A stretch of DNA of 64,000 nt from Solimonas fluminis (GTDB lineage: Bacteria; Pseudomonadota; Gammaproteobacteria; Nevskiales; Nevskiaceae), in the NCBI RefSeq assembly GCF_002930645.1, contig NZ_PSNW01000001.1, forward strand, positions 364,600-428,599, given 5' to 3'. The position numbers and the translations under genes were made by a program. The notes beneath the pieces were generated by a model. That model worked only from the letters and a program-made list of their open reading frames with translations. It was not told the origin of the DNA and did no database searches. Shown piece after piece: positions 48,221 to 64,000 of this stretch; within the stretch, counting starts at the first letter, position 1; each line of letters begins with the position of its first letter.

Positions 48221-50158
48221 ATGGCGAAGCAGGGGTTGGAGGGCGTTCGTACGCGCTGGACCTATGGTCCGAAGCTGCTGGCGGTGTTCCTGGGTGGTGC
48301 TGTGGTCCCGGCCTGGGCCGGTTCCTTCGACTTCCTCGGGCTCGAGGGCCAGTACCAGGTGCAGGCGGCCTACTCCGCCGCGATGCGCCTCCACGACCCG
48401 GACGACCGCATCATGAACACCGCCCCGGCATCCTCGATCCCCCTGCCGGACTACCTGAAGCTGCCGGAGTCGAACAACTACGACGACGGCGACCGCAACT
48501 TCAAGAAGCACTCGCTGGTGAACAATCGCCTGTCGCTGCTCGGCGAGATCCAGCTGAACTATGGCGACTACGGCCTGCTGGTGCGCGGCGACGCCTTCTA
48601 CGACGACGTCTACCACCGCAGCAACGACAACGACTCGCCGCCGCCGGACCAGCCGGGCGCGACGATCAACAAGACCGAGCTGCCCACCAACCGTTTCAGC
48701 GACGCCGCCGAGTACTACGACGGCCAGCGCGCGCGCCTGCTGGACGCCTACGTCTACGGAAGCTGGTACCTGACCGACGAAGCCGCGCTGAACCTGCGCG
48801 TGGGCCGCCACATCGCCGCCTGGGGCGAAAGCCTGTTCTTCGCCGGCATCGCGCTGGCCCAGTCCCCGGCGGACGCCACCAAGGCCACCGTGCCGGGCGC
48901 GGACGTCAAGAGCATCCTGCTGCCGGTCAACCAGGTGTCGATGCAGCTGGCGCTGAACGACAAGCTGACGATCCTCGGCCAGTACAAGCTGGAGTACAAG
49001 CCGACCGAGCTGAACCCGGTGGGCGAGTTCTTCTCGGTGGCCGACGTGGTCGGCCCGGGCGCCGAGTTCATCTACGGCATCGACAACCCGCTGTACCTGT
49101 CGCAGCTCAACGACGTCAACCTGCTGTCCGACGACGTGCCCGAGGCGATCGACCTGATCAACCGCCTGCTGCTGCCCAACGTCACGGCCCTGACGCCCAT
49201 CTACGGCGCCCTGGGCGGCATCCTGGCTCGCCTGGATCCCAACATCACCGATGTGTTCATCCCGGACCTCGAAGCGCTCCAGCCGGCCGGCACCCCGCGC
49301 TACATCAACGTGCAGCGCGGGCCGGACGTCCGGCCGAGCGACCATGGCCAGTACGGCGTGGGCATCAAGTACCAGGTCACGCCGAACACCAACCTGGGCC
49401 TCTATCACCTGCGCTACCACAACACCACCCCGGCGCCGGTGCAGAACTACGGCTATGCCCTGCTGCTGCCCTCGCCGGTTCCGGGCGGCCCCGACATCAC
49501 CACCGAGCAGCTGGGCCTGCAGGTGCCGGTGACCTACAACGTGCACTACTTCGACGGCATCCACATGTCGGCGATGAGCTTCTCCACCGCCCTGTTCGGC
49601 GCCAACGTCGGCGGCGAGCTGATCTACCGTGACGGCGTGGACGTGCTGGTGGACGTGGACGGTGGCCTGCTGGGTCCGGTGCCCACGCCGGTGCGCGCCA
49701 AGGTCGGCCAGGTCAACGTCAACGCCCTGTACGTGATCGGTCCCCAGTACTTCTGGGATGCCCTCACGGTGGTCTCGGACTTCGGCTACAACTGGGTCAT
49801 CGACCGCGACGAGGGCTGCGGCCCGACCAGCTGCTCCGACAAGCTGACCTACAGCAAGGAAGCGGCGGCCTACTCCTTCCTGTTCATCTTCGACCGCAAG
49901 AACATCTTCAACGGCTGGGATCTGCAGGTGCCCGTCACCCACTCCAAGACGGTGCTGGGGCAGTCCTCGCTGCTGTCCGGCTTCGGCTCGCAGATGGGCG
50001 AGGACGACTGGCGCGCCAGCATCGGCTTCAACTTCACCTACCTGCAGAAGATCACGCTGGGCGTGAGCTACAGCGGCTACTACGGCACGCCGCACTTCAA
50101 GACCAACCCCTATGCCGACCGCGACAACGTCGGCTTCACCGCAAAGTACAACTTCTAA
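48221..50158 (+). CDS. DUF1302 family outer-membrane protein
   Basis: Predicted outer-membrane beta-barrel protein of 645 residues, a family usually found with DUF1329 in degraders of hydrophobic compounds and thought to act in their uptake or export. It has a signal peptide (LLAVFLGGAVVPAWAG) and the family blocks NFKKHSLVNNRLSLLGEIQLNYG, DAYVYGSWYL, LRVGRHIAAWGESLFFAGIA and LGQYKLEYKPTELNPVGEFF. Alternating hydrophobic strands run to a C-terminal aromatic residue (GFTAKYNF), as in outer-membrane barrels. A GGGGAGA ribosome site precedes the ATG. Its likely DUF1329 partner is at 52161-53534. The flavin reductase gene follows after nine bases. Confidence 0.92.
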   Translation: MAKQGLEGVRTRWTYGPKLLAVFLGGAVVPAWAGSFDFLGLEGQYQVQAAYSAAMRLHDPDDRIMNTAPASSIPLPDYLKLPESNNYDDGDRNFKKHSLVNNRLSLLGEIQLNYGDYGLLVRGDAFYDDVYHRSNDNDSPPPDQPGATINKTELPTNRFSDAAEYYDGQRARLLDAYVYGSWYLTDEAALNLRVGRHIAAWGESLFFAGIALAQSPADATKATVPGADVKSILLPVNQVSMQLALNDKLTILGQYKLEYKPTELNPVGEFFSVADVVGPGAEFIYGIDNPLYLSQLNDVNLLSDDVPEAIDLINRLLLPNVTALTPIYGALGGILARLDPNITDVFIPDLEALQPAGTPRYINVQRGPDVRPSDHGQYGVGIKYQVTPNTNLGLYHLRYHNTTPAPVQNYGYALLLPSPVPGGPDITTEQLGLQVPVTYNVHYFDGIHMSAMSFSTALFGANVGGELIYRDGVDVLVDVDGGLLGPVPTPVRAKVGQVNVNALYVIGPQYFWDALTVVSDFGYNWVIDRDEGCGPTSCSDKLTYSKEAAAYSFLFIFDRKNIFNGWDLQVPVTHSKTVLGQSSLLSGFGSQMGEDDWRASIGFNFTYLQKITLGVSYSGYYGTPHFKTNPYADRDNVGFTAKYNF

Positions 50159-50167
50159 CGAGTACGG

Positions 50168-51175
50168 ATGACCCAGCCAGCCCCCCTGGATCCGCAGGAG
50201 TTCCGCAAGGCCCTCGGCACCTTCGCCACCGGCGTCACCATCATCACCACCCGCGCGCCGGACGGCTCGCAGGTGGGGCTGACGGCGAACAGCTTCAACT
50301 CGGTTTCTCTGAATCCGCCGCTGGTGCTGTGGAGCCTGGCGAACAACTCGCTGAGCCTGGAGGCTTTCCAGAAGGCCGAGAACTGGGCGGTGCATGTGCT
50401 GGCCGCAGACCAGGAGCCGCTGTCGACCCGCTTCGCCAAGCGGGGCATCGACAAGTTCGCGGGCATCGACATCGAGCAGGGCCTGGGCGAGGTTCCGCTG
50501 CTGCGCGGCTGCAACGCGCGATTCCAGTGCCGCACGGCTTTCCAGTACGAGGGCGGCGACCACGTCATCTTCGTCGGCGAGGTGCTGGCCTTCGACCGCG
50601 CCGAGAACGCGCCGCTGGTGTTCCACAGCGGCCGCTACGCACATGCGGCCCACAAGGGCGGCAACCAGCCGCGCAATCCGGCGCTGGCGGGCAGCTTCAA
50701 CGAGGACTTCCTCGGCTACCTGCTGGGCCGCAGCCACTTCCAGTTCTTCAGCCAGATCCGCAAGGCCCTGGCCGAGGAGAACCTGAGCGACGAGGAGTTC
50801 TACCTGCTCTCGACGCTGACGCTGAAGCGCATCATGAGCGCCGACGAACTCGACAATGGCATGTCCAGCGTGCTGGGGGAGCACAGCGACGCCGCCGCCG
50901 GCGCACTGATCCGCCGTGGCCTGGCGCGCTCGGTCGGCGGCACCACGGACGCGGAGGGCCCTGCCTTCCAGCTCACCAACGAGGGCAGCGCCCTGGCCCT
51001 GCGCCTGATCTCCGCCGCCAAGGCGGTGGAGTCTCAGCTGCTGGAGCGCCTGGCTCCGGGCGAGGCCGCCATGCTCAAGACCCTGCTGCACCGCCTGCTG
51101 GGAGCGATCGATCCCGGCTCGGGCCTGCTGTGGCAGACGCCGGACGCCAAGGCGGCGGTACCGACCGGCGCCTGA
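50168..51175 (+). CDS. Flavin reductase fused to a MarR-like domain
   Basis: Predicted NAD(P)H:flavin reductase supplying reduced flavin to a monooxygenase. Residues 1 to about 165 are a flavin-reductase-like split barrel (FRKALGTFATGVTIIT, VGLTANSFNSVSLNPPLVLWSL, CRTAFQYEGGDHVIFVGEVLAF, PLVFHSGRYAH). Residues about 200-320 resemble a MarR winged helix (LSDEEFYLLSTLTL, SVLGEHSDAAAGALIRRGL, FQLTNEGSALA). The same layout occurs in the reductase C1 of p-hydroxyphenylacetate 3-hydroxylase, where the MarR-like part lets the aromatic substrate control the reductase. Length is 335 residues. No oxygenase component is encoded next to it; it follows DUF1302 and ends at a terminator. Confidence 0.9.
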   Translation: MTQPAPLDPQEFRKALGTFATGVTIITTRAPDGSQVGLTANSFNSVSLNPPLVLWSLANNSLSLEAFQKAENWAVHVLAADQEPLSTRFAKRGIDKFAGIDIEQGLGEVPLLRGCNARFQCRTAFQYEGGDHVIFVGEVLAFDRAENAPLVFHSGRYAHAAHKGGNQPRNPALAGSFNEDFLGYLLGRSHFQFFSQIRKALAEENLSDEEFYLLSTLTLKRIMSADELDNGMSSVLGEHSDAAAGALIRRGLARSVGGTTDAEGPAFQLTNEGSALALRLISAAKAVESQLLERLAPGEAAMLKTLLHRLLGAIDPGSGLLWQTPDAKAAVPTGA

Positions 51176-51235: not shown

Positions 51236-52096
51236 CTACTTCGCGGCCGGGATCTTGAAGGTCATGCGCATGATGGATTCGAGCTGGCTGTCGGAGAACA
51301 GCCGGCGCATCACGCCCATGGGCTTGACGTCCTTGCCCAGCAGTTCCATGGGCTTCCACTTCTTCTTGGCCAGGATCTCCAGCGTACCCTGCAGGGCCTG
51401 CTCGGGGCTGCTGCCGGTCTTCTCGAGCATGTCGGGCAGCACCTTGCACATCACGCTCTTGAGCGGCTCGTAGACCTTCTGGATCTCGGCCGGCTGCTCG
51501 CCCCAGGTCTTGAGGGTGTTGGCATGGGAGTTGGCGGACATCGCCGTGAGCACGCCGCCCGGGATGATGGAGGTGACCTGGATGCCCAGCGGCGCCAGCT
51601 CGTGGCGCAGCGTCAGCGTCATGCCGTGGATGGCGTGCTTGGTCATGTTGTACGCGCCGGCGCCGACCGGGTTGGCGATGATGGCCCCCGAGCTGTAGTT
51701 GGCGATGCGCGAGCCCGGCGCGTTCTTGCGCAGCAGGGGCAGGAAGGCCTGGATCACGCGCAGCTGGCCGAACATGTTGATGTTGAACAGGCGCTCCACC
51801 GCGGCCAGGTCGGCGCCCTCGACGACGCCGACGCCGACATTGGCGACGCCCGCCACGTTCATCAGCAGGTCCAGGCCCTGGCCGTCCAGTTCGCGGGTGA
51901 CGAACTCGGCGCTGGCGCGCACGGATTCGGTCTTGGAGACGTCCTGGTCGACGACGACGATGTTGCCCTCGGTCTTCAGGTCGGTGGGCGCGCCGGGGAG
52001 CACGCCGGCGAACACCTTCCAGCCCTGCCCGGCGAGCGCCTTGGTGAGCAGGTTGGCCTGGCCGACGTTGGCGCCGGTGATGAATGCGGTCTTCAT
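51236..52096 (-). CDS. Short-chain dehydrogenase/reductase
   Basis: NAD(P)-dependent oxidoreductase of 286 residues. The cofactor motif is atypical at its end (FITGANVGQAN instead of TGxxxGIG), followed by LLMNVAGVANVG (NAG-like), IANYSSGAIIANPVGAGAYNMTKHA (catalytic Ser, Tyr and Lys) and SIIPGGVLTAM. The C-terminal extension (about 80 residues, KKKWKPMELLG) is longer than in classical SDRs. Substrate unknown; a hydroxysteroid or hydroxyacyl compound would fit the neighbours. It converges with the flavin reductase gene. Confidence 0.93.
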   Translation of the reverse strand: MKTAFITGANVGQANLLTKALAGQGWKVFAGVLPGAPTDLKTEGNIVVVDQDVSKTESVRASAEFVTRELDGQGLDLLMNVAGVANVGVGVVEGADLAAVERLFNINMFGQLRVIQAFLPLLRKNAPGSRIANYSSGAIIANPVGAGAYNMTKHAIHGMTLTLRHELAPLGIQVTSIIPGGVLTAMSANSHANTLKTWGEQPAEIQKVYEPLKSVMCKVLPDMLEKTGSSPEQALQGTLEILAKKKWKPMELLGKDVKPMGVMRRLFSDSQLESIMRMTFKIPAAK

Positions 52097-52160: not shown

Positions 52161-53534
52161 TCAGTGGCCGCCGCGGGCGGCCGCTTCCGGCGTGAACATG
52201 GCCGGGGTCAGCGGCACGTTGATGCGCCACCAGTCCTTGCCGCGCTCGTTGGTCAGGTAGCCGGCCTCGTAGGCGCCGGAGGTCAGGTCGTGATAGATCG
52301 ACGCGCCGCGGTGCCAGGTGGCGGATTCCTGCGAGTAGAAGTAGTTCACGAAGGCGACGCGCCAGAGCTGGCCGCGGCCGTCCTGGTTGTCGGCCCAGAG
52401 GGCGATCCAGGAGTCTTCGTCCGCATACAGCGTGCGCTTGGAGTAGATGTGGCGCATGCCGGACTTCAGCGAGCCTTCCACCACCCAGACGCGATGCAGC
52501 TCATAGCGCACGTAGTCGGGATTCACGGTGTTCGGCTTGATGATGTCCGAGTACTTCAGGGCCGGGTCGTTGATCTTGAAGTTGTGGTACGGGACGTACA
52601 CTTCCTTCTTGCCGACCAGCTTCCAGGTGTAGCGCTCCGGGGAGCCGTTGAAGACGTAGTCGTCGTCGACGGTGCGCAGGCCGGCGGGCGGAACCGGGTA
52701 GTCGCAGCAGACTTCCGGCGCCTGGCGCACGCGGCGGATGCCGGGCTGGTACTGCCAGGACTGCGTGGCGTCGTTGCTGAAGTTGTTCGGCTGGTAGCCG
52801 ACGGCGACGAAGCCCTTGTCACGCTCCGGCAGCAGGTAGCCGGTGTAGAAGTAGGCATTGATCTTGTCGGTGTACGAGCCGCGCTTGGCCGGGTTGTTGC
52901 CCGGGTTCATGGTCATGAACTTGTTGCGGCCCCAGGCAATGCTGCCGTTGGCGTAGACGTCGGCGATGTCGCAGACGGCCTGTTCGGTGTAGGCGCGATG
53001 CGGGTTGATGATGTTCCACACCGCTTCCGAGCCGTTGGTCGGGAACGGGAACGGGATGGCGCCGCTGATGCCGGTGGTGCCCAGGCCGTCGTCGACCACC
53101 TCGGCGGTGACGGCGTTCTTCTTGACCGTGTCGCAGACCCAGGGCTTGTGCCCGAAGTCGCGGTGGCTCTGGTACACGTTCATCTTGTAGGACTGCGGAT
53201 ACTTCTTGAACAGGGCCTTCTGGCCCTCGGTCAGCTTGTCCGCGTACTTGCTGTAGTTCTGCGCCGTGATGGTGAACAGCGGCTTCTCGTCCTTGTAGGG
53301 GCCCGGCTCATAGCCGTAGGGCTTGGTCTGGCCCGGCCAGGTGCCCACCCACTTGCCGCTGTACTCGGGAATGGTTCCGTCCTTGTTGGCGGCCTTCTCG
53401 GCACCCATGCAGGTGAACTTGGGACCAGCCAGCTCGGCAGCCTTTTCGGCCGAGACCTTGGCGGAAGCGCTCTGGGCCGACAGGCCGGCCATCGTGGCCA
53501 GCAGGAACGACGCCAGTACGGGTTTGAATTTCAT
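52161..53534 (-). CDS. DUF1329 family exported protein
   Basis: Exported protein of 457 residues with a LolB-like fold in its family; commonly linked with DUF1302 and implicated in handling hydrophobic compounds. Signal peptide LASFLLATMAGLSAQSASA, then KFTCMGAEKAANKDGTIPEYSGKW, TGISGAIPFPFP, AVWNIINPHR, GIRRVRQAPEVCCDYPVPPAG, YERYTW-like PERYTWKLVGKKEVYVPYHNF and YELHRVWVVEGSLKSGMRHIYSKRTLY. Two adjacent Cys (VCCD) are typical of nothing I know. It is on the opposite strand from its presumed DUF1302 partner, with the SDR and flavin reductase between. Confidence 0.93.
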   Translation of the reverse strand: MKFKPVLASFLLATMAGLSAQSASAKVSAEKAAELAGPKFTCMGAEKAANKDGTIPEYSGKWVGTWPGQTKPYGYEPGPYKDEKPLFTITAQNYSKYADKLTEGQKALFKKYPQSYKMNVYQSHRDFGHKPWVCDTVKKNAVTAEVVDDGLGTTGISGAIPFPFPTNGSEAVWNIINPHRAYTEQAVCDIADVYANGSIAWGRNKFMTMNPGNNPAKRGSYTDKINAYFYTGYLLPERDKGFVAVGYQPNNFSNDATQSWQYQPGIRRVRQAPEVCCDYPVPPAGLRTVDDDYVFNGSPERYTWKLVGKKEVYVPYHNFKINDPALKYSDIIKPNTVNPDYVRYELHRVWVVEGSLKSGMRHIYSKRTLYADEDSWIALWADNQDGRGQLWRVAFVNYFYSQESATWHRGASIYHDLTSGAYEAGYLTNERGKDWWRINVPLTPAMFTPEAAARGGH

Positions 53535-55075: not shown

Positions 55076-56470
55076 TCAAATCCGTGACGCAGAAATCAGC
55101 CGGCCTTCTCTCCAGCATGCCCTCACCTCCACCTGCGCCAGCGCGTTGCGCGCCACGCCCCAGGGCTGCGTCAGCAGGCACAGGTCCGCCGCCGCTCCCA
55201 CCGCCAGCTTCGGTGCCGCAGTGCCCGGCGCCTCCAGCGGCGAGGTGAACAGCGCCAGCGCCTGCTCCGGCGTCAAGGCCTCCCTTCCCGCCACCGGTTG
55301 TCCCGCGGCCGTCCGCCGCTGCACCGCGGCATCCATCGCTGCCCAGGGATCGGCATCGCCGTAGGGAGCGTCGGAGCTGCCGGCGAGGCGGATGCCGCGA
55401 TCCAGGATGCCACGCAGGCGATACAGCCAGGGCTGGTCGATCGCCTCCACGTCGCGCAGGTAGGCATCGCCGCGCGTGGCGATGAAGCCGGGCTGCGTCA
55501 CCACGGCGAGCCGCAGCTCGGCGACCTGCTCCAGCAGCTCCGGCGGACAGACCGAGGCGTGCTCGATGCGGTCGCCCTGACGGACGCCGGCTTCCTGCAG
55601 CGCCGCCAGGGCAAAGGCGAGATCCACGCGGCTGACGCAGTGGAAGGCGACGCCGCGGCCGGCGGCATGCGCGGCGCGGATATCGGCGCACAGCACATCG
55701 AAGTCCGGCAGTTCATGATCGTGCAGGTGGAACTTGCGTTCGCCGCGCTGCAATCCAGGCCGGTCCGCCGCCGCATCGAGCCCGGCGTTGCCCATCACGC
55801 GCAACGACTGCAGGAGATCGCCGCGCTGCTGCGCCTCGGCGAATGCCGTCCAGGCCGCCATGTCGTTGTCATGGCTGGTATCGCAAAGGCCAGTGACGCC
55901 GCGGCTGGCGAACCAGCGGCTGACCTCGCCCAGCGCGGGACGGCGGCCGCCGATGCGCGCACGCAGCCAGGCATCCGCATCGTAGAGACGCCCCGTGGCC
56001 CGTCCCTCGCGGCGCTCCAGGGGATCATCGGCAGACTCCTCGACCAAGGCCAATGCGGCGGAGTTCAGCAGCCAGAGCCGGCCGCTGCGATGCTGCAGGC
56101 GCAATGGGCGCTCCGGCACGGCAAGGTCGAGCCAGGAGCGGTCGACGTCGCCGGCCACCGACTCGTGGTAGCCGACGCCGCGCAGCCATTCTCCCGGCGC
56201 CCCCGCGATATCGGCCTTGCGCAGGGCTTCGGCCAGCGCGTCGGCACCAGCCACGGCCGGCGGGCCGCAATCCACCGAGGCACGCGCGGCGGCCAGGGCA
56301 TGCAGATGCAGGTGGTGATCCCTGAGCCCCGGCAGCAGGACGCCACCGGCGGCATCGAGCACCGGCTCGCCGGGCTCGGCTGGCAAGCCCTCGGATATCT
56401 CGGCGATGCGGCCTTCGCGCAGGCGCAGATCCACGCGCAGGCCATCCAGTTCGGCGCGGCGGATCAGCAT
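55076..56470 (-). CDS. YtcJ-like amidohydrolase
   Basis: Metal-dependent hydrolase of the amidohydrolase superfamily, YtcJ-like branch, 464 residues. It starts MLIRRAELDGLRVDLRLREGRIAEI, with the barrel metal motif LLPGLRDHHLHLHALA (HxH), a central FHLHDHELPDFD region, VAFHCVSRVDLA, DRIEHASVCPPE (His) and RLAGSSDAPYGDADPWAAM (catalytic Asp), and ends with the usual LAVGAAADLCLL beta-domain. The start overlaps the CoA transferase stop by seven bases. It is the last gene of the minus-strand catabolic run. Substrate unknown. Confidence 0.9.
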   Translation of the reverse strand: MLIRRAELDGLRVDLRLREGRIAEISEGLPAEPGEPVLDAAGGVLLPGLRDHHLHLHALAAARASVDCGPPAVAGADALAEALRKADIAGAPGEWLRGVGYHESVAGDVDRSWLDLAVPERPLRLQHRSGRLWLLNSAALALVEESADDPLERREGRATGRLYDADAWLRARIGGRRPALGEVSRWFASRGVTGLCDTSHDNDMAAWTAFAEAQQRGDLLQSLRVMGNAGLDAAADRPGLQRGERKFHLHDHELPDFDVLCADIRAAHAAGRGVAFHCVSRVDLAFALAALQEAGVRQGDRIEHASVCPPELLEQVAELRLAVVTQPGFIATRGDAYLRDVEAIDQPWLYRLRGILDRGIRLAGSSDAPYGDADPWAAMDAAVQRRTAAGQPVAGREALTPEQALALFTSPLEAPGTAAPKLAVGAAADLCLLTQPWGVARNALAQVEVRACWREGRLISASRI

Positions 56471-57801
56471 GCGGCCCACTCCGCGATCACTTCGGCAGTG
56501 TGGGCGCCAAGCGCGGGCGCAGCACCGATGGGGATGCGGGCCTGCGGCATGCGGGCACCGCCATCGGCCATGGCGCGCCCGGTCCACTCGCGCTGGCGCG
56601 CACGCAGGACTTCATCGCCATCCGGCAGATCGAATTGCAGGCAGTGGCGCACCACGTCGCGCAGCGCCAGGGACACCAGCCTGCCGCCACCCGCCTGCCA
56701 GCCCGCCCAGGCCGCCAGCGCGGCATGGAGGCCCGTGAGCGGATCGGCGATGGCGTCGCCGACGATCAGCGCCTGCCCGGTGACTCGATGCAGGGTGTCG
56801 CTGAGTCCTGCCGCCACCGCGGCATCGTCGCCATAGGCGATCCACTGCTCCTGCGGATCGCCACGGCCGTAGCCGCTGAGGCTGATCCAGGTCAGGCCGT
56901 GTTCGCGCGCGAGGGCCTCCGCGTCGAAGCCCATCTGCCGCAGCGCACGCGGGCGCGAGGCTTCGATGACGATGTCGGCGGCCGTCATGAGGCGGCGCAA
57001 CTGCGCCCGGCCCTCGCCGCTGCGCAGGTCCAGCGCCACGCTGCGCTTGCCGGCGTTCATCAGGTCGAAGAAGGCCGGCGGGCCGTTGCGCGCACCGTCG
57101 GGGCGCTGGGTGCTTTCCAGCTTCACCACGTCCGCGCCAAGCCGCTGCAGCAGGTGTCCGCAGAGGGGTCCGGCCCAGAGCGAGGAGAGGTCGAGGACGC
57201 GAGGCGCACGCTCGCGCACGTCGGACGCCCGCGCCGTGAATCCACGCAGCCAGGGGCGGTCCTCCCGCTCCGGCTGCGCATCGGCCAGCGCCAGCCCGAG
57301 CAGGCGCCCCTGCTCGATCAGCGGCCCCACCGGGCGCTCGCAGACGGCCGCAGCCAGGCCCTCCCAATCCGGCGCCGGTTCCATCTCCAGCCAGGCGGGC
57401 AGCAGCTCCCAGTCGTCGTCGCGAGCCAGGTTCAGGGCGAACCAGCCGTCGGCGGCCTGCAGCAGTCGGCAGGCCCCGCCGGGGGAGGCCGCCCCCTGGC
57501 GCCGATGGCCCGCGATGGCCGCGCGCTCGGCCAGCAGCGCCGCGGCATCGATGCCGTCGAGGGCACCTGCCGGGGCGAGTGCCGACAACGCGGCCAAGGT
57601 ACCGTCGGCACAGGCGGCCAGCGGCGCGGGAAACATCAGGGGGGCATCGGGCGTGCCGGTCAGCGCCATCAGGCCGCTGCGCGACCAGCGCAGGGCGGGA
57701 TGCTCCGCGGGCACGGCCAGCGGCGCGTGTGCCGGCCGGCCCAGCTGGGCCAGCAGGCGTTCGGCATAGGCCACTGCAACGGAGTCATCGCGCTCGGACA
57801 T
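56464..57801 (-). CDS. CaiB/BaiF (class III) CoA transferase, two-part layout
   Basis: Predicted CoA transferase of 445 residues. The typical class III core starts only at about residue 200 (VLDLSSLWAGPLCGHLLQRLGADVVKLES), followed by FFDLMNAGKRSVALDLRSGEGR, DIVIEASRPRALRQMGFD and GDAIADPLTGLHAALAAWAGW, whose Asp lies where the family's catalytic Asp is found. The first 190 residues also contain a segment like the middle of a CaiB protein (SGLMALTGTPDAPLMFPAPLAACADGTLAAL), so this may be a rearranged or partly duplicated CoA transferase. It lies between the SRPBCC and amidohydrolase genes in the catabolic run, where it could activate an acid with CoA from another acyl-CoA. Confidence 0.88.
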   Translation of the reverse strand: MSERDDSVAVAYAERLLAQLGRPAHAPLAVPAEHPALRWSRSGLMALTGTPDAPLMFPAPLAACADGTLAALSALAPAGALDGIDAAALLAERAAIAGHRRQGAASPGGACRLLQAADGWFALNLARDDDWELLPAWLEMEPAPDWEGLAAAVCERPVGPLIEQGRLLGLALADAQPEREDRPWLRGFTARASDVRERAPRVLDLSSLWAGPLCGHLLQRLGADVVKLESTQRPDGARNGPPAFFDLMNAGKRSVALDLRSGEGRAQLRRLMTAADIVIEASRPRALRQMGFDAEALAREHGLTWISLSGYGRGDPQEQWIAYGDDAAVAAGLSDTLHRVTGQALIVGDAIADPLTGLHAALAAWAGWQAGGGRLVSLALRDVVRHCLQFDLPDGDEVLRARQREWTGRAMADGGARMPQARIPIGAAPALGAHTAEVIAEWAAC

Positions 57802-57851
57802 GGCGCGCAGTACAGCAGACGCGGCGCGGCGGCGCTACGCGGGCAAGCGGC

Positions 57852-58307
57852 TCAGGCGGCCTTGCGCTGCCGGGCCAGTTCCTCGGCGCGCTTCTGCAGG
57901 GCCGCGGTCATGCCGGCGAAGCCGGCCTGCAGCTTGCCGCCCAGCAGGCCCACCACGACCGGATGCAGCCAGCCCTTGAGGTGGAAGTAGGAACGGTAGC
58001 GCGTACGGCCGGGACCGATGGCCTCGACGTCGTGCGAGCGCTGGCTCGACAGGGCGTTCAGCGGCACCGGCTTCATGCGGTAGGCGAAGCGCTTGCCCGG
58101 CACGAACTCGGTGACCCACTCGCGCTGGGCTTGCGGCCTGGCCAGCAGCTTGACCTGCATGTCGATGGGATCGCCCGGCTTGAACGAGGTCTGCAGCTCG
58201 ACCTGGAAGGGGTTCCATTCGGGGTAGCGCGCGACGTCCGTGATCACTTCCCAGACCACGTCGGCAGGGGCGGCGATCTCGATGACTTTTTCGATGACGA
58301 AGGGCAT
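57852..58307 (-). CDS. SRPBCC (polyketide-cyclase/START-like) family protein
   Basis: A 151-residue protein of the SRPBCC helix-grip fold, which binds hydrophobic ligands. Family features: MPFVIEKVIEIAAPADVVWEVITDVARYPEWNPF at the N-terminus (the W..dl..Wp.W pattern), then a set of beta-strands and a long C-terminal helix. No catalytic residues can be assigned. It is nine bases downstream of the acyl-CoA ligase stop and may carry the hydrophobic substrate or product. Confidence 0.92.
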   Translation of the reverse strand: MPFVIEKVIEIAAPADVVWEVITDVARYPEWNPFQVELQTSFKPGDPIDMQVKLLARPQAQREWVTEFVPGKRFAYRMKPVPLNALSSQRSHDVEAIGPGRTRYRSYFHLKGWLHPVVVGLLGGKLQAGFAGMTAALQKRAEELARQRKAA

Positions 58308-58316
58308 TTATGGATC

Positions 58317-59819
58317 TCAGGCGGCTTTCTGCACGAATTCCTGGCGGATGATGCGGCGCAGGACCTTGCCCAGTTCGTTGTAGGGCAGCGCATCCTTGAA
58401 CACGATGGCCTGCGGCACGCGCGAGGAGCGCAGCTTGTTCTTCACCAGTTCCTGCAGCTCGGCGACGCTGGCGCTGGCGCCGGCCTTGAGCACGACGGCG
58501 GCGGCGACACCCTCGCCCCACTGCTCGTCGGGCATGGCGACCACGGCGACGTCGGCCACGGCCGGGTGGCCCAGCAGCACGTCCTCGATCTCGCCCGGGG
58601 AGATGTTCTCGCCGCCGCGCACGATCACGTCATCGGCACGGCCGTCGAGGAAGAGGTAGCCCTCGGCGTCGAGGTAGCCGCGATCCTTGGTCGGGAACCA
58701 GCCGTCGGCGTCGAGCTGGCTGCCCAGCGACAGGTACTCGCCGGAGACCTGCGGGCCGCGCACGAAGACCAGGCCCGCTTCCTCGGGGCCCAGCACCTTG
58801 CCGGACTCGTCGCGGATCTCGATCTCGACCGCACCGGGCTTGCCCACGGAAGCGAGGCGGCGCTGCACGGCGGGATCGCTGCTGGCGGCGGCGGCGCGGT
58901 GGTCGTCCGGGCCCAGCACGGCGATGGTGGAACTGGTCTCGGTCAGGCCGTAGGCATTGGTGAAATCCACCGTCGGAAACAGCTGCATGGCCTTGGCGAT
59001 GGTGGAGAGCGGCATCTTGCCGCCACCATAGGCCAGGGCGCGCAGTGCCGGCAGGTTCGGCTGCGTGCCGCTGTCGACGAGGTGATCGACGATGCGCTGC
59101 AGCATCGTGGGCACCAGGAAGGCGTTGCTGACGCTGTTCTCGCGACAGGCGTCGAGCCAGGCGGCAGCCTCGAAGTTCTCCATCTGCACCATGCGGCGGC
59201 AGGCGTAGGTGGAGCTGAGCACCGCCGAGATGCCGGCGATGTGGTACGGCGGCACGGTGACGACGATGGCGTCGTCCTCCTCGGCCGCGGCGAATTCCAC
59301 GGTGCCGACGATGTAGGACATCAGGTTCTCGTGACGCAGGATCGCGGCCTTGGGCTCGCCGGTGGTGCCGCTGGTGAACAGCTGCACGGCGATGGCGCGC
59401 GGATCCTCGGCCGGCTGCGGCAGTTCGTCGCCGCCTTCGGGCAGGGCCAGGAACGCGGCGCGGTCGATCACCTCGATGTCGGCGCGCTTCTCGATCCTGC
59501 CGCTGAAGTCGGCGCTGGTGACCAGCACCGCCGGGGCGACGCGCGCCAGCAGCTTGTTGATCTCGGCCGGCGTCAGGCGGTAGTTGAGCGGCACGTAGGG
59601 AATGCCGGCGTAGGCGGCGCCGAACAGGGCCACGGGGGCGGCCGGACTGTTGACGTCCAGCAGGGCCACGTAGGCCGCGCCGCTGGCCTTGAAGCGGCGC
59701 GCGGCGCGCCAGGCTGCCTCGCGCAGCTCGGCATAGGTGTAGCGCTGGCCGCCGGAGACGACGCCGATGCGGTCGCCGAAGGCTTCGGCGGCCATGTCGA
59801 GGATGGTGGAGATGTTCAT
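58317..59819 (-). CDS. AMP-dependent acyl-CoA synthetase
   Basis: ATP-dependent acyl-CoA ligase of 500 residues: activates a carboxylic acid via an acyl-adenylate. Landmarks are the P-loop-like LFTSGTTGEPKAAILRHEN, VPPYHIAGISAVL, NAYGLTETSSTIAVLG, the hinge block WFPTKDRGYLDAEGYLFLDGRADDVIVRGGENISPGEIEDVLLGHP and the late catalytic Lys in LPYNELGKVLRRIIR. The substrate pocket cannot be read, but context (Ltp2-like thiolase homologue, DUF35) suggests a steroid-, terpenoid- or aromatic-type acid. It precedes the SRPBCC gene by nine bases. Confidence 0.96.
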   Translation of the reverse strand: MNISTILDMAAEAFGDRIGVVSGGQRYTYAELREAAWRAARRFKASGAAYVALLDVNSPAAPVALFGAAYAGIPYVPLNYRLTPAEINKLLARVAPAVLVTSADFSGRIEKRADIEVIDRAAFLALPEGGDELPQPAEDPRAIAVQLFTSGTTGEPKAAILRHENLMSYIVGTVEFAAAEEDDAIVVTVPPYHIAGISAVLSSTYACRRMVQMENFEAAAWLDACRENSVSNAFLVPTMLQRIVDHLVDSGTQPNLPALRALAYGGGKMPLSTIAKAMQLFPTVDFTNAYGLTETSSTIAVLGPDDHRAAAASSDPAVQRRLASVGKPGAVEIEIRDESGKVLGPEEAGLVFVRGPQVSGEYLSLGSQLDADGWFPTKDRGYLDAEGYLFLDGRADDVIVRGGENISPGEIEDVLLGHPAVADVAVVAMPDEQWGEGVAAAVVLKAGASASVAELQELVKNKLRSSRVPQAIVFKDALPYNELGKVLRRIIRQEFVQKAA

Positions 59820-59826
59820 GGGAAGC

Positions 59827-59927
59827 CGGGAATCGGGAATCGGGAATGGGGAATCGATAAAGACGGGGTCATGGGAAATGCGAACCTGTGGCTTCTACGA
59901 TTCCCGATTCCCCACTCCCGATTCCCG
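59827..59927. repeat. Inverted repeat built of GGGAATC-type units
   Basis: The left arm (59827-59856) has four GGGAAT/GGGGAAT units (CGGGAATCGGGAATCGGGAA then TGGGGAATCG). The right arm (59898-59927) is its near reverse complement, with about 41 bases between. Such GGGAATCGGGAATGGGGAATC elements are widespread between genes in Xanthomonadaceae-type genomes. It separates the ligase gene from the small unknown gene and may terminate or attenuate the operon. Confidence 0.85.
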
Positions 59928-59932
59928 TCTTT

Positions 59933-60250
59933 TCAGTCCGAAGACGGCAGCTGCTTGGCCTGCTTGATCTCCAGCGCGGTGCCGTCCAGCGACAGCGTGC
60001 CCTTGCCGCCCTTGGTGCAGAGCAGCTCCAGGGACTCGTCGGCATTGACGTAGCGCTTGCCGATCAGGGTCTCGCCGGACAGGGCCGGGTCCAGCGCGCC
60101 GCCGGCCGGGGCGGCCGTCGTGGCACCCACCATGTCGGCGCCGCCGCAGCGCAGCTCGAACTCACCGGCCGGGGCCTTGACCACCATCACCTGGGTGTCG
60201 CAGACCGTGCTCTTGAAGCGAGCGCCTGCCTTGAGTGCCGTCTTTGCCAT
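59933..60250 (-). CDS. Small conserved-looking protein of unknown function
   Basis: A 105-residue cytoplasmic protein starting MAKTALKAGARFKSTVCDTQ, with three cysteines (in STVCDTQ, ELRCGGAD and ELLCTKGGKG). The pattern of V-rich strands, CGG and the C-terminal GTLSLDGTALEIKQAKQL suggests a small beta-fold that might bind a metal or ligand. I do not recognise a named family. It sits in the catabolic run between the acyl-CoA ligase and the alpha/beta hydrolase with a 146-base gap upstream, where a separate promoter is possible. Confidence 0.8.
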   Translation of the reverse strand: MAKTALKAGARFKSTVCDTQVMVVKAPAGEFELRCGGADMVGATTAAPAGGALDPALSGETLIGKRYVNADESLELLCTKGGKGTLSLDGTALEIKQAKQLPSSD

Positions 60251-60396
60251 CTTTGTCTCCAGCGTCAATCCGTTATGCGAATACAGGGGGGCCCGCCAGC
60301 GGCGGCCGATAGGGGTGAACTTTAGTCCAGCGGCGGGGAGAGTACCCCGTCCACTTGAGTGAGTCCGGCTTACCGCCCGGACGGTCCCGGCGGCCT

Positions 60397-61410
60397 TCAG
60401 CCGCCGGCGCGCTCGGACTGGATTTCCACCACGGCGCGGATCCACAGCGACAGGCGCTCGAACAGGCCGTCGCGCGAGGGGAACAGGAAATGGCTGTGGC
60501 CGGCTTCCTTGAGGATGTGCAGGGTCACGTCGCGCGACTTGTGGAAGGCCGCGGGAATCTGGTGGGTGGGGCCGGCCATGTCGCGCTCGCCCAGGCCCAG
60601 GAAGATCGGCACCTCGATCTGCGCCGCCTCGGGGGCGACGTTGCCCGGCAGCATCGACATGAAGGCCGGCACCGGCAGCAGGGGGCCGCGGGCCGCCTTG
60701 ATCGCCTCCACCGCGCGCGGGTCGGCGTTGCCGCCGGCGTAGATGGCATTGGACTGGCCATTGGCGCGGATGACGGGATAGGGCTCCACGAACATCTTCT
60801 TCGCCAGGCGCGGCAGCTGCGCGCGCACCGCGGCAGGGTCTGCCGCCAGCTCGCGCGCCTCGGGCGGCAGGTATTCCGGCAGGCCGCGGGTGGAGAAGCC
60901 CAGCAGCACGATGCCGGCGTGCTGCTTCGCATGGGCCTGCTGCAGCACGGTCATCATCGCGCCCATGGAGTGGCCCACCCCCAGGCTCAGCAGGTGCGGC
61001 AGGCGCGGGATGCCCGGGACGAGGCTGCCCTCGCGCAGGCGGCGCAGCACCACGTCGGTGGCCTGGCTGTTGGCCCGGGCCAGCAGGTCGGCGGTCAGCA
61101 GGTAGCCGTCCTCGGGGCGGTCGCTGTCGCCCATGCCGAGATGGTCCATGGTGACGACGATGAAGCCGCGCGCGCTCATCTGGCGCGCGAAACTGAAGCT
61201 GCCGTCGCCGTCCGGGGGCACCAGGTCGTAGTAGCGGCGGTTCATGCCGCCGCCGGGCAGGCAGACCAGCACCACCGGCGGCGAACGCAGGCTGCGGAAA
61301 TCCGGCGTGTGCACGTCCACGGCGATGCGCGCGGACGGCAGCTCCGGCAGCTCGATGCCGGACTCGACGCGCAGGCTGGCGCCGTACTCGGAATGGGTCA
61401 GCATGGTCAT
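60397..61410 (-). CDS. Alpha/beta hydrolase
   Basis: Serine hydrolase of 337 residues. The fold landmarks are VVLVCLPGGGMNRRYYDL (oxyanion loop), VTMDHLGMGDSDRP, the nucleophile elbow LGVGHSMGAMMTVL (GHSMG), FLGLGERDMAGPTH (acid) and ILKEAGHSHFLFPSR (catalytic His). ATG 61410 is the first in frame after the Rieske stop (11 bases); 61404 is an alternative. In its operon it may hydrolyse an ester, lactone or thioester intermediate. Substrate unknown. Confidence 0.93.
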   Translation of the reverse strand: MTMLTHSEYGASLRVESGIELPELPSARIAVDVHTPDFRSLRSPPVVLVCLPGGGMNRRYYDLVPPDGDGSFSFARQMSARGFIVVTMDHLGMGDSDRPEDGYLLTADLLARANSQATDVVLRRLREGSLVPGIPRLPHLLSLGVGHSMGAMMTVLQQAHAKQHAGIVLLGFSTRGLPEYLPPEARELAADPAAVRAQLPRLAKKMFVEPYPVIRANGQSNAIYAGGNADPRAVEAIKAARGPLLPVPAFMSMLPGNVAPEAAQIEVPIFLGLGERDMAGPTHQIPAAFHKSRDVTLHILKEAGHSHFLFPSRDGLFERLSLWIRAVVEIQSERAGG

Positions 61411-61421
61411 CTGTCGGGAAC

Positions 61422-61787
61422 TCAGGCTTCGAGGTAGAGCTTGCCGTCCGCCTCGGTCACGTTGAAGGTCTTCAGCGGCGCCGGCTTGCGGCCGGCGGCG
61501 ACCAGGGCGCGGCTCCAGGCCGGCAGCGGCAGCCCGGCCACGGAATTGACCCAATCCAGGTTCTCGCCGGTGCAGGCGTCGAAGCGCGAGCCATGCCAGG
61601 GACAGCGGATGGTGCCATGCTCGACCCTGCCACGCGTCATCGGCAGGTTGAAGTGCGGACAGCGGTTCTCGACGGCGCAGGCACGCCCCGCCACCCGCGT
61701 CAGCAGCAGCGAGCGCCCCTCGGCGCTCACCGCATGCAGCCGTCCCTCCTGGACCTCCCCCGAGGCTGCCAGTTCGACACGACTCAT
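61422..61787 (-). CDS. Rieske [2Fe-2S] ferredoxin-like protein
   Basis: A 121-residue protein consisting of a Rieske domain: ENRCPHFNLPMTRG and TIRCPWHGSRFD provide the two Cys and two His ligands (CxH...CxxH), followed by GLPLPAWSRALV. The size fits an electron carrier of a ring-hydroxylating or other oxygenase rather than a catalytic subunit. No large oxygenase subunit is encoded next to it. It lies between the thiolase homologue and alpha/beta hydrolase genes with tight spacing. Confidence 0.94.
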   Translation of the reverse strand: MSRVELAASGEVQEGRLHAVSAEGRSLLLTRVAGRACAVENRCPHFNLPMTRGRVEHGTIRCPWHGSRFDACTGENLDWVNSVAGLPLPAWSRALVAAGRKPAPLKTFNVTEADGKLYLEA

Positions 61788-61823
61788 CGCACCGCTCCCT
61801 GCGGGCCCTGCCCGCCCCAAAGC

Positions 61824-62990
61824 TCAGTCGACGCTGAGGACCGCTCCCGCCATGCCGGAGGACACCAGCACGTTGGTGACGCTCTTCACCTGGTTGACCG
61901 AGGTGCCGCGGATCTGGCGCACGCCCTCGGCCATGCTGTTCATGCCGTGAATATACGCCTCTCCGAGCAGGCCGCCATGGGTGTTCGTCGGCAGGATGCC
62001 GTCGATGGCCAGCGCCCCGGACTTGACGAAGTCCTTGCCCTCGCCCGGCTTGCAGAAACCGAAGCCTTCCAGCTGCAGCAGCACGTGCGGCGTGAAGGCG
62101 TCATAGATCATCGCCGCCTGCATGTCCTTGGGCCCGAGGCCCACCATGTCCCACAGGCGCCCGGCCACGCCCTGCGCCTCGGGCATCACGGTGAGGTCTT
62201 CGTGGTAGTAGTTGGAGATCACTTCCACGTTGTAGGGGATCGACTGCGTGGCACCGAGGATGCGCACCGGCTTCTGCTTGAGGTCGCGCGCGCGCTCCAG
62301 GCTGGTGACCAGGATGGCCTGGCCGCCGTCGCTTTCCTGGCAGCAGTCCAGCATGCGCAGCAGCGGCTCCATGATCCACTTGGAGTTCTGGTGGTCTTCC
62401 AGGGTGATCGGCTTGTTGTAGAACCAGGCCTTGGGATTGGTGGCGGCGTACTGGCGCTGCTGCACCGAGATCAGGCCCAGGTCGCGGTTGGTGACGCCGT
62501 ACTTGTGCATGTAGCGCTGCGCCTGCAGCGCGCCCCAGCTGGCCGGGGTCATGGCGCCGAAGGGCACGCACCACAGCAGCGAGCCGGTGCCGTTGCCCGA
62601 CTGGTAGTTGGTGGTGTTGGTCGGGTTCTGGCCGAAGCGGTACTGGCTGCGCTCGTTCATCGCGCGCCAGATCAGCACGTTCTTGCACAGGCCGGCGTTG
62701 ACCATCGCCATGGCCTGGTAGATGGTGCCGGCCGCGGCGGCGCCGCCGCCGGGAATGCGGGTGGTATAGGCCAGGTCCTTCACGCCCAGGCAACGCGCGA
62801 GCATCATCTCGTCGCTGTTGTCGATGGTGAAGGTGATCATGCCGTCGATGTCGTGCGGGCTGATGCCGGCGTCGTCGCAGGCGGCCTTGGCGCACTCGGC
62901 GGCCAGCTGCAGCTCGCTGCGGCCGGATTCCTTGGAAAATTCGGTGGCGCCGATGCCGGCGATGGCGGCTTCGGTGAATTGGCGTGCCAT
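61824..62990 (-). CDS. Thiolase-fold lipid-transfer-like protein (Ltp2/SCP-X type)
   Basis: A 388-residue thiolase-fold protein of the lipid-transfer type. It begins FTEAAIAGIGATEFSKESGRS and has RIPGGGAAAAGTIYQAMAMV (residues 78-97), where true thiolases carry their nucleophilic Cys; here none is present. Further blocks are AMIYDAFTPHVLLQLEGFGF and LPTNTHGGLLGEAYIHGMNSMAEG. In steroid side-chain degradation such Cys-less proteins (Ltp2) act as retro-aldolases together with a DUF35 partner; here the DUF35 gene ends ten bases upstream. Aldol cleavage of a branched acyl-CoA is the best prediction; the exact substrate is open. Confidence 0.92.
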   Translation of the reverse strand: MARQFTEAAIAGIGATEFSKESGRSELQLAAECAKAACDDAGISPHDIDGMITFTIDNSDEMMLARCLGVKDLAYTTRIPGGGAAAAGTIYQAMAMVNAGLCKNVLIWRAMNERSQYRFGQNPTNTTNYQSGNGTGSLLWCVPFGAMTPASWGALQAQRYMHKYGVTNRDLGLISVQQRQYAATNPKAWFYNKPITLEDHQNSKWIMEPLLRMLDCCQESDGGQAILVTSLERARDLKQKPVRILGATQSIPYNVEVISNYYHEDLTVMPEAQGVAGRLWDMVGLGPKDMQAAMIYDAFTPHVLLQLEGFGFCKPGEGKDFVKSGALAIDGILPTNTHGGLLGEAYIHGMNSMAEGVRQIRGTSVNQVKSVTNVLVSSGMAGAVLSVD

Positions 62991-63000
62991 GTCGGGTCCC

Positions 63001-63441
63001 TTACTTCTTGACGGGCCGGAACACCGGCACCTTGTGGTTGTTCATCGTGGGCTCGAAGGTGACTTCGACCGGCATGTCCTGCACCACCTCGTCGTAGGCC
63101 ACGCCGACGACGTTGGAGACGAAGCGGGTGCCTTCCTCCAGCTCGATCACGGCGATGATCGGGGCTTCCTTGAAGCCGAACGGAGGCGGATGGCGGGCGA
63201 TGGCCCAGGAATGCACCTTGCCCTTGCCGGACAGGGGCACTTCCTCGCGCTTCAGGCTGAAGCACTTGGGGCACATCGGCCGGGGCGGGAAGCGGAACTC
63301 GCCGCAGTCGCCGCACTTCTGGCCGAGGAACAGCTCCTTGTCGGCGCCCTCCCAGAAGAACTTGGCGTCGAGCGTGACGATCGGCGGGATGCGGGTGGGC
63401 TTGGGTGCGGCGGGCGCCGCAGGCTGTTCTGGCGTGCTCAT
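63001..63441 (-). CDS. Zn-ribbon OB-fold protein (DUF35)
   Basis: A 146-residue acyl-CoA-associated protein: Pro/Ala-rich start, then the rubredoxin-like zinc ribbon GQKCGDCGEFRFPPRPMCPKC (two CxxC), then an OB-fold (KGKVHSWAIARHPPPFGF, IIAVIELEEGTRFVSNVVG). DUF35 proteins pair with thiolase-like enzymes such as the Ltp2 aldolase or archaeal HMG-CoA/thiolase complexes. It directly precedes the thiolase homologue gene and is probably its obligate partner. Confidence 0.95.
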   Translation of the reverse strand: MSTPEQPAAPAAPKPTRIPPIVTLDAKFFWEGADKELFLGQKCGDCGEFRFPPRPMCPKCFSLKREEVPLSGKGKVHSWAIARHPPPFGFKEAPIIAVIELEEGTRFVSNVVGVAYDEVVQDMPVEVTFEPTMNNHKVPVFRPVKK

Positions 63442-63514
63442 GAGTCCCCTCAGGTTTGCATGGACCTTACAGGGGGTAAAGCTTGGGGGGCCTGCCTCAA
63501 ATGGGTGAGGACAC

Positions 63515-63577
63515 CCCGTAGCAGCCCGCTTGCTGGCGACGCTGGCCTTGCAGTCGCCAGCAAGCGGGCTCCTACAG
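63515..63577. repeat. REP-like palindrome
   Basis: AGCCCGCTTGCTGGCGAC (63523-63540) and its exact reverse complement (63553-63570) form an 18-base stem with a 12-base loop, flanked by CCGTAG and CCTACAGG. The core GTAGGAGCCCGCTTGCTGGC on the opposite strand resembles REP elements of Pseudomonas and Xanthomonadales. It lies between the tetR and DUF35 genes. Confidence 0.85.
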
Positions 63578-63595
63578 GGCAAGAAGCTGCGGCAA

Positions 63596-64000
63596 TCAGG
63601 GCTCCTTGAGCATCGCCAGCACGGTCTGCTGGATGCGCTGCAGGTAGCGGGGCGTATTGCGCACCTTCTGCTCGAACACCCGCTCGATGGTCAGGCCGGT
63701 CAGGAAGCAGTGGGCGAAGGTCAGGACCTCGCGTGCGCGGGCCTCGTCCAGCCTGACGTCGGCGAAGATCTCGCGCAGCGACACCAGGGGATCGCGGCTG
63801 AAGCGGTCCTCCCAGTTGGGCGGCGCCTCCTCGTGGAAGCCGCGGGTGGCGAGCAGGATCTCCAGCATCGCCAGGTAGGCGTCGTCCTGGTAGTGCGCCC
63901 ACATGGTCTCGAGGAAGCCCTCCACCCGCTGGGCCAGCGAACCTGCCCGCAGGGCCGGATCGGCCATGCGCTGGGCGAAGCGCTCGTGGGCCAGGTTCAT
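63596..64000 (-). CDS. TetR family regulator, C-terminal part (truncated by window edge)
   Basis: The open frame runs off the right edge; only the last 134 codons are seen and the ATG at the very edge need not be the true start. The visible part is an all-helical ligand domain (LAQRVEGFLETMWAHYQDDAYLAMLEILLATRG, VLTFAHCFLTGLTIERVF) typical of the TetR family; no DNA-binding domain is visible. It lies first in the minus-strand direction, ahead of the DUF35-thiolase operon, and is the likely repressor of it. Confidence 0.75.
   Translation of the reverse strand: MNLAHERFAQRMADPALRAGSLAQRVEGFLETMWAHYQDDAYLAMLEILLATRGFHEEAPPNWEDRFSRDPLVSLREIFADVRLDEARAREVLTFAHCFLTGLTIERVFEQKVRNTPRYLQRIQQTVLAMLKEP

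What the first reader, a model, noticed from the sequence alone, without database searches (positions are those of the whole stretch)
55076..64000. Ten-gene catabolic operon around a Cys-less Ltp2-like thiolase homologue and DUF35
TetR (partial), DUF35, Ltp2/SCP-X-type protein, Rieske ferredoxin-like, alpha/beta hydrolase, small Cys protein, acyl-CoA ligase, SRPBCC, CoA transferase and amidohydrolase are co-directional. Ltp2-DUF35 pairs are known retro-aldolases in steroid side-chain breakdown, so the operon probably activates and shortens a branched steroid-, terpenoid- or aromatic acid. The gene combination with amidohydrolase and SRPBCC is not one I recognise.
Basis: partly seen in the sequence, partly recalled or inferred. 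Interest (0 to 1): 0.65.

Follow-up and report, generated by a model that had tools for sequence, protein, structure and literature searches.

The report
Steroid-degradation operon with hydratase-free aldolase pair
The ten genes are real and form the side-branch of a bacterial steroid-eating pathway shared across one order of soil and water bacteria; the carbon-cutting enzyme pair belongs to a known family but has lost its usual partner enzyme and one active-site residue, and it travels with an unnamed small protein that pairs with an acid-activating enzyme.

Summary
Ten co-directional minus-strand genes (55076-64246) encode TetR, a stand-alone DUF35 protein, an Ltp2 homologue, a Rieske protein, an alpha/beta hydrolase, an unnamed 105-aa protein, an acyl-CoA ligase, SRPBCC, a CaiB-type CoA-transferase and an amidohydrolase. 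The Ltp2 homologue is 55% identical to crystallised T. curvata Ltp2. The thiolase nucleophilic Cys position is Gly, and both catalytic Tyr are kept. The oxyanion His of YDHF is Ala in every Nevskiales copy.

Steroid role: across 85 genomes of the order, the Ltp2 gene occurs in 44, and 43 of those carry an HsaC orthologue; none of the other 41 does (p=1e-23). In five relatives the operon directly follows the HsaC-IpdAB C/D-ring cluster. The gene preceding TetR resembles 3-oxosteroid 1-dehydrogenase.

Differences from the textbook igr operon: DUF35 is not fused to a MaoC hydratase. ChsH1 is missing from the Ltp2-positive genomes apart from one weak hit. Instead the pair sits with a tandem CaiB gene and the small-protein/ligase and CoA-transferase/amidohydrolase pairs. 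Those pairs recur on Rhodococcus and Sphingobium plasmids, and in one genome without IpdA, so they are not steroid-exclusive. Verdict: new variant of a known kind; the exact reaction is inferred.

The parts
63596..64000 (-). TetR regulator (C-terminal part in window; full gene to 64246 = L009:2196-2846)
   Evidence: Pfam TetR_N 9.6e-11; coordinates
63001..63441 (-). stand-alone DUF35 protein (zf-ChsH2 + OB fold, Cys4 zinc ribbon CGDC...CPKC), aldolase partner subunit
   Evidence: (6ok1_B 4e-25)
61824..62990 (-). Ltp2-type retro-aldolase (thiolase fold), YDAF motif, both catalytic Tyr kept, no nucleophilic Cys
   Evidence: (6ok1_A 1.8e-131)
61422..61787 (-). Rieske ferredoxin-like protein, intact CPH..CPWH motif; lineage-specific
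   Evidence: truncated remnants in L011 and L032
60397..61404 (-). alpha/beta hydrolase (GHSMG)
   Evidence: conserved after LTP2 in nearly all syntenic loci
59933..60250 (-). unnamed 105-aa conserved beta protein, nearly always next to an acyl-CoA ligase
   Evidence: no Pfam/NCBIfam; alignment A1; AF2 pLDDT 91.8 with no PDB fold match
58317..59819 (-). acyl-CoA ligase (TSGTTGEPK)
57852..58307 (-). SRPBCC protein (Polyketide_cyc2)
56464..57801 (-). type III CoA-transferase-like protein; residues 198-395 match the CaiB N-terminal half, Asp349/Asp353 invariant; N-terminal 200 aa unusual
55076..56470 (-). Amidohydro_3 metal-dependent hydrolase, overlaps the CoA-transferase gene by 7 bp
52161..53534 (-). 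DUF1329 protein, part of the same cluster in several relatives
51236..52096 (-). SDR, follows DUF1329 in this genome and relatives

Best explanation
The operon is a displaced piece of the Nevskiales aerobic (9,10-seco) steroid catabolic cluster and handles the side-chain acid. Proposed working: the ligase (with its small partner) makes the CoA thioester of a steroid carboxylic acid; general or cluster-borne acyl-CoA dehydrogenases and a hydratase, or a hydroxylase, yield a beta-hydroxyacyl-CoA; the Ltp2-DUF35 pair then breaks the bond by retro-aldol chemistry (first Tyr as base on the beta-hydroxyl, second Tyr as acid to the enolate), releasing propionyl-CoA (or a related short acyl-CoA) and a ring ketone that enters the KstD/KshA/HsaC/IpdAB route. 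CoA-transferase, amidohydrolase and alpha/beta hydrolase would recycle CoA or trim conjugates and intermediates. Shown: family, active-site residues, synteny and co-occurrence with steroid ring genes. Inferred: substrate, order of steps, roles of the accessory proteins.
For: Ltp2 and DUF35 both hit the T. curvata Ltp2-ChsH2(DUF35) aldolase as best solved relative; 55% identity, tree places it inside the Ltp2 clade (86/99) with the Nevskiales copies as one clade (100/99). Tyr of YD-F and Tyr of GEAY kept; nucleophile Cys is Gly (residue roles from PMC12329534). LTP2 vs HsaC orthologue over 85 genomes: 43 both, 1 LTP2 only (a fragmented MAG), 0 HsaC only, p=1.3e-23; nine genera are split, with both genes gained or lost together; 21 genomes have both on one contig within 22-87 kb. 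In five genomes the order runs HsaC-IpdA-IpdB-...-CaiB2-DUF35-LTP2-hydrolase-small-ligase(-SRPBCC-CoAT-AMIDO)-P450-DUF1329. This genome has IpdA (6co6, 1.5e-77), KshA (4qdc, 1e-111) and a KstD-like gene two genes upstream of DUF35 (7p18 3-oxosteroid 1-dehydrogenase, 551 bits).
Against: No substrate or expression data. ChsH1, the usual hydratase partner, is not found in LTP2-positive Nevskiales apart from one weak hit, and no ChsE1/E2-ChsH1/H2 set lies beside LTP2 here, so how the beta-hydroxyacyl-CoA arises is open. The oxyanion His is Ala. The small-ligase and CoAT-amidohydrolase pairs occur in a genome without IpdA and in non-steroid plasmid contexts, so their roles need not be steroid-specific.
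Confidence: 0.66

Rival explanations
1. The operon degrades another branched or cyclic acid (terpenoid, alkyl-aromatic or cyclic ketone acid) and its co-occurrence with HsaC reflects one shared catabolic lifestyle rather than one pathway.
For: Small-ligase and CoAT-amidohydrolase pairs sit on Rhodococcus (R. opacus, DK17) and Sphingobium plasmids among P450, ACAD, CaiB and thiolase genes without HsaC/IpdAB in the stretches shown, and in G343, which lacks IpdA.
Against: LTP2 itself tracks HsaC almost one-to-one over 85 genomes and is physically joined to the C/D-ring cluster in relatives; three non-Nevskiales proteobacteria with 50-57% LTP2 also have IpdA; KstD-like gene upstream.
Confidence: 0.2
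2. The Ltp2-DUF35 pair no longer does the canonical propionyl-CoA release but cleaves a different bond (for example a C/D-ring intermediate, or a hydroxylase-made beta-hydroxy thioester), which explains the missing hydratase and the changed oxyanion residue.
For: ChsH1 essentially absent from LTP2-positive genomes; YDAF/YEAF in all Nevskiales copies with the full motif; location downstream of the C/D-ring genes.
Against: YDAF also occurs in two Acidimicrobiia whose full igr set (ChsH1, split ChsH2, ACADs) is present, so Ala there is compatible with the canonical reaction; other MaoC hydratases exist in the adjoining cluster; a Shy-type hydratase was not searched across the order.
Confidence: 0.25
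3. The ten genes are not one transcription unit; TetR ends the upstream KstD/PQQ unit and the small-ligase and hydrolase groups have their own promoters.
For: Gaps of 154, 146 and 113 bp; in L013 and L038 the small-ligase pair lies about 8 kb from LTP2-hydrolase.
Against: Same order and direction in most Nevskiales; no sigma70-like promoter or better-than-chance terminator inside.
Confidence: 0.35

Closest known systems
Ltp2-ChsH2(DUF35) steroid C3-side-chain aldolase (T. curvata, M. tuberculosis igr operon; PDB 6ok1)
   Same: Fold family, DUF35 partner next door, both catalytic Tyr, no nucleophilic Cys, 55% identity
   Different: DUF35 is stand-alone, not fused to MaoC; YDHF is YDAF; ChsE1E2/ChsH1H2 genes are not beside it
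Sal-Shy bile-acid C5-side-chain aldolase (C. testosteroni, PDB 9myr; PMC12329534)
   Same: Thiolase-fold aldolase with DUF35 partner, Gly at the thiolase nucleophile
   Different: Sal uses YDCY with catalytic Cys and a Gln where this protein has Tyr; weaker match (152 vs 442 bits); Cys3His1 zinc site vs four Cys here
KstR2-type HIP (C/D-ring) steroid gene cluster (HsaC/IpdAB/IpdC/EchA20; PMC5380842)
   Same: Homologous set present on contig C29 of this genome and joined to this operon in relatives
   Different: As I know it, the described cluster does not include the small-ligase, CaiB2 or CoAT-amidohydrolase genes
R. opacus pRop44186_a 30-kb catabolic cluster (uncharacterised)
   Same: Small protein + ligase, zinc-ribbon DUF35 + lipid-transfer protein, two adjacent CaiB genes, CoAT + amidohydrolase, P450
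   Different: Its Ltp homologue is only 39% identical with a YDCF motif; no steroid ring genes in the stretch

Membership tests
Ltp2 steroid aldolase family | sequence family (PRK07855 / TcLtp2) above curated cut-off | tested here: met
   538 bits vs cut-off 469; 6ok1 1.8e-131; tree
Ltp2 steroid aldolase family | thiolase nucleophilic Cys absent | tested here: met
   NNNCS of true thiolases aligns to PGGGA
Ltp2 steroid aldolase family | catalytic Tyr pair (TcLtp2 Tyr294, Tyr344) | tested here: met
   YDAF and GEAY
Ltp2 steroid aldolase family | oxyanion His of YDHF | tested here: not met
   Ala in all Nevskiales copies with the motif, YDAF or YEAF; a supporting rather than essential residue (14-fold effect, PMC12329534), so it marks a variant, not exclusion
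Ltp2 steroid aldolase family | DUF35 partner with zinc ribbon | tested here: met
   adjacent DUF35, 6ok1_B 4.4e-25; Cys4 motif in the Nevskiales copies
Ltp2 steroid aldolase family | retro-aldol activity on steroid-CoA | not testable with these tools
   needs enzyme assay
igr-type side-chain operon | ChsH2 as MaoC-DUF35 fusion | tested here: not met
   DUF35 proteins of 139-151 aa in Nevskiales
igr-type side-chain operon | ChsH1 and ChsE1E2 beside Ltp2 | tested here: not met
   not in operon; ChsH1 query finds none in the LTP2-positive genomes except a weak hit in G032; ChsE1E2 not searched genome-wide
[quoted passage not shown]
   HsaC scores below NCBIfam's equivalog cut-off (270 vs 450 bits)
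type III (CaiB/BaiF) CoA-transferase | complete fold with catalytic Asp | tested here: inconclusive
   N-half of the CaiB fold found with invariant Asp, rest of fold not matched

The most novel reading that the evidence does not exclude
A gammaproteobacterial clade of Ltp2-DUF35 aldolases has been uncoupled from its hydratase complex and retuned (YDHF to YDAF) to cleave a steroid thioester produced by another route, working together with a previously unnamed 100-aa protein family that is the regular partner of an acyl-CoA ligase and with a rearranged CaiB enzyme.
Probability: 0.25. Interest if true: 0.6.

Novelty: new variant of a known kind. Interest (0 to 1): 0.45.

Why it matters
It ties a conserved but unexplained gene set of the whole order Nevskiales to steroid breakdown and gives a concrete test of whether Ltp2-DUF35 aldolases can act without the MaoC hydratase they are normally complexed with. 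It also flags an unnamed protein family that sits next to an acyl-CoA ligase in Gamma- and Alphaproteobacteria and Actinomycetota. Steroid side-chain aldolases are of use in making steroid drug precursors.

Tried and rejected
Natural-rubber lead (Solimonas/Nevskiales rubber oxygenases, PMC10837239): no link to this operon found. Metal-site idea for the 'small Cys protein': Cys17 and Cys78 vary to Ser/Ala among homologues, only Cys35 is invariant, so a conserved three-Cys site is rejected. CYP125 identity for the cluster P450: best PDB matches are other P450s, CYP125 variants rank low. Strict rule 'YDAF goes with loss of hydratase': rejected, because L037/L043 have YDAF with ChsH1 and a split ChsH2. 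Circular permutation of the CoA-transferase: only a weak profile hit (E 0.01, probability 4%) of its N-terminal part to the CaiB C-half, left open. Foldseek for the small protein: nothing below E 1. Literature searches found no description of this operon in Solimonas; Hydrocarboniphaga had been predicted a steroid degrader (PMC4810484).
Full report
Observation. The ten ORFs were re-derived with start codons and gaps. They lie on the minus strand in the order TetR (63596-64246), DUF35, Ltp2 homologue, Rieske, alpha/beta hydrolase, 105-aa protein, acyl-CoA ligase, SRPBCC, CoA-transferase, amidohydrolase (ending at 55076). Upstream of TetR and packed against it are a KstD-like FAD enzyme, a PQQ dehydrogenase and a DUF1302 protein; downstream, beyond a divergent pirin-like gene, are DUF1329 and an SDR. 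The organism is a Solimonas-like member of Nevskiales, with Ltp2 97% identical to Solimonas sp. SE-A11.

The aldolase pair. Ltp2 and DUF35 both have the T. curvata Ltp2-ChsH2(DUF35) complex, 6ok1, as their best solved relative. Alignment with true thiolases of the same genome shows the nucleophile Cys replaced by Gly and the GHP position replaced by Tyr. According to PMC12329534, TcLtp2 uses Tyr294 (YDHF) as base, Tyr344 as acid, and His296 as part of the oxyanion hole, where replacement costs 14-fold. The two Tyr are present here; the His is Ala (YDAF, or YEAF) in every Nevskiales copy with the full motif, while most actinobacterial copies and three other proteobacterial ones have YDHF. In a maximum-likelihood tree the Nevskiales copies form one clade (100/99), sister to a YDHF copy from another gammaproteobacterium, G206 (100/97), inside the Ltp2 group.

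Conservation. In Nevskiales loci the core DUF35-LTP2-hydrolase-small-ligase, mostly with SRPBCC-CoAT-amidohydrolase, is syntenic. The Rieske gene is not part of the core: the two nearest relatives keep only a 49-aa remnant and other genera lack it.

Link to steroids. Over the 85 held genomes of the order, LTP2 (E<=1e-100) is in 44 and the HsaC orthologue (long match, E<1e-75) in 43 of those and in none of the other 41; Fisher p=1.3e-23. Genomes are related, so this p is not a count of independent events, but nine genera are split and in each both genes come and go together, and many of the negatives are at least 90% complete. In 21 genomes both genes share a contig at 22-87 kb. Reading five of these shows one co-directional cluster: HsaC-IpdA-IpdB-EchA20-IpdC-hydratase-ACADs-thiolase-SDR-ACADs-SDR-MaoC-thiolase-BNR-MMPL-CaiB2-DUF35-LTP2-hydrolase-small-ligase-(SRPBCC-CoAT-amidohydrolase)-P450-DUF2505-DUF1329-SDR-aldehyde dehydrogenase, with gaps in single genomes. 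In Solimonas the cluster is split between contigs C29 and C1; KshA and a P450 65% identical to the cluster one lie on C31. IpdA and KshA identities rest on solved structures; IpdB, IpdC and EchA20 are named by position and family. The KstD-like protein's best solved match is 3-oxosteroid 1-dehydrogenase 7p18.

Where it departs from the textbook. In canonical igr-type operons, also seen here in G166, G388, Novosphingobium ES2-1 and Vibrio alfacsensis, Ltp2 sits with ChsH1, a MaoC-DUF35 fusion and acyl-CoA dehydrogenases. In Nevskiales DUF35 is a separate 139-151 aa protein, and a ChsH1 query finds no match in LTP2-positive genomes except one weak hit in G032, while finding weak homologues in six LTP2-negative ones. 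G206 shows the same association (CaiB2-DUF35-LTP2 plus small-CoAT-amidohydrolase) with YDHF. YDAF arose independently in two Acidimicrobiia with a split ChsH2 and a retained hydratase, so YDAF does not by itself mean loss of the hydratase step. Whether a Shy-type hydratase or another MaoC protein serves Nevskiales was not settled.

Accessory modules. The 105-aa protein has no Pfam or NCBIfam match, a confident beta model (pLDDT 91.8) and no PDB fold match. It lies beside an acyl-CoA ligase in nearly all Nevskiales loci, in a second copy of this genome (C15), in G343 and on Rhodococcus and Sphingobium plasmids. Exceptions: L017, where the ligase is not found next to it, and G206, where no ligase match was seen in the stretch read. 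The CoA-transferase carries the N-half of the CaiB fold with invariant Asp residues and an unusual N-terminal region, and pairs with the amidohydrolase on the same plasmids. G343 has small-ligase-x-CoAT-amidohydrolase without IpdA. These modules are therefore general catabolic parts recruited here.

Mechanism and limits. The best-supported account is ligase activation followed by retro-aldol shortening of a steroid side chain feeding the ring pathway. Steroid involvement I hold at about 0.9; the specific propionyl-releasing reaction at about 0.55. No expression, growth or enzyme data were available.

Judgement. It is a new variant of a known system, with moderate interest.

Noticed in passing
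L009:2828-8421 (just upstream of window end): DUF1302 - PQQ-dependent dehydrogenase - KstD-like FAD enzyme - TetR tightly packed; best PDB match of the FAD enzyme is 3-oxosteroid 1-dehydrogenase 7p18.
   Followed up: partly
window 48221-51175: Second DUF1302 protein followed by a two-domain flavin reductase resembling HsaB / p-hydroxyphenylacetate hydroxylase reductase; possibly more steroid genes.
   Followed up: partly
L009:10052-16571: Adenylylsulfate kinase and a separate group of DUF1214 (two copies), sulfotransferase, SDR and EthD-like genes; may indicate sulfated substrate handling.
   Followed up: no
L011:11206-11358 and L032:9457-9642: Truncated remnants of the Rieske gene in close relatives, intact only in this genome.
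   Followed up: yes
window about 59817-59850: Short tandem repeats TTCCCGATTCCCGATTCCCGG directly before the ligase gene.
   Followed up: no
L110:9332-32811 (Rhodococcus opacus pRop44186_a): Uncharacterised catabolic cluster with the same set of small protein, ligase, Ltp, DUF35, CaiB pair, CoA-transferase and amidohydrolase but a YDCF-type Ltp.
   Followed up: partly
L037 and L043: Acidimicrobiia igr-type operons in which ChsH2 is split into separate MaoC and DUF35 genes and Ltp2 carries YDAF, parallel to Nevskiales.
   Followed up: partly
L059:1462-20000 and L049 (own contig C11): Another catabolic cluster: Rieske oxygenase, ACADs, P450, DUF35 + thiolase-like (YDGF) and the start of an amidohydrolase_2-like gene.
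   Followed up: no
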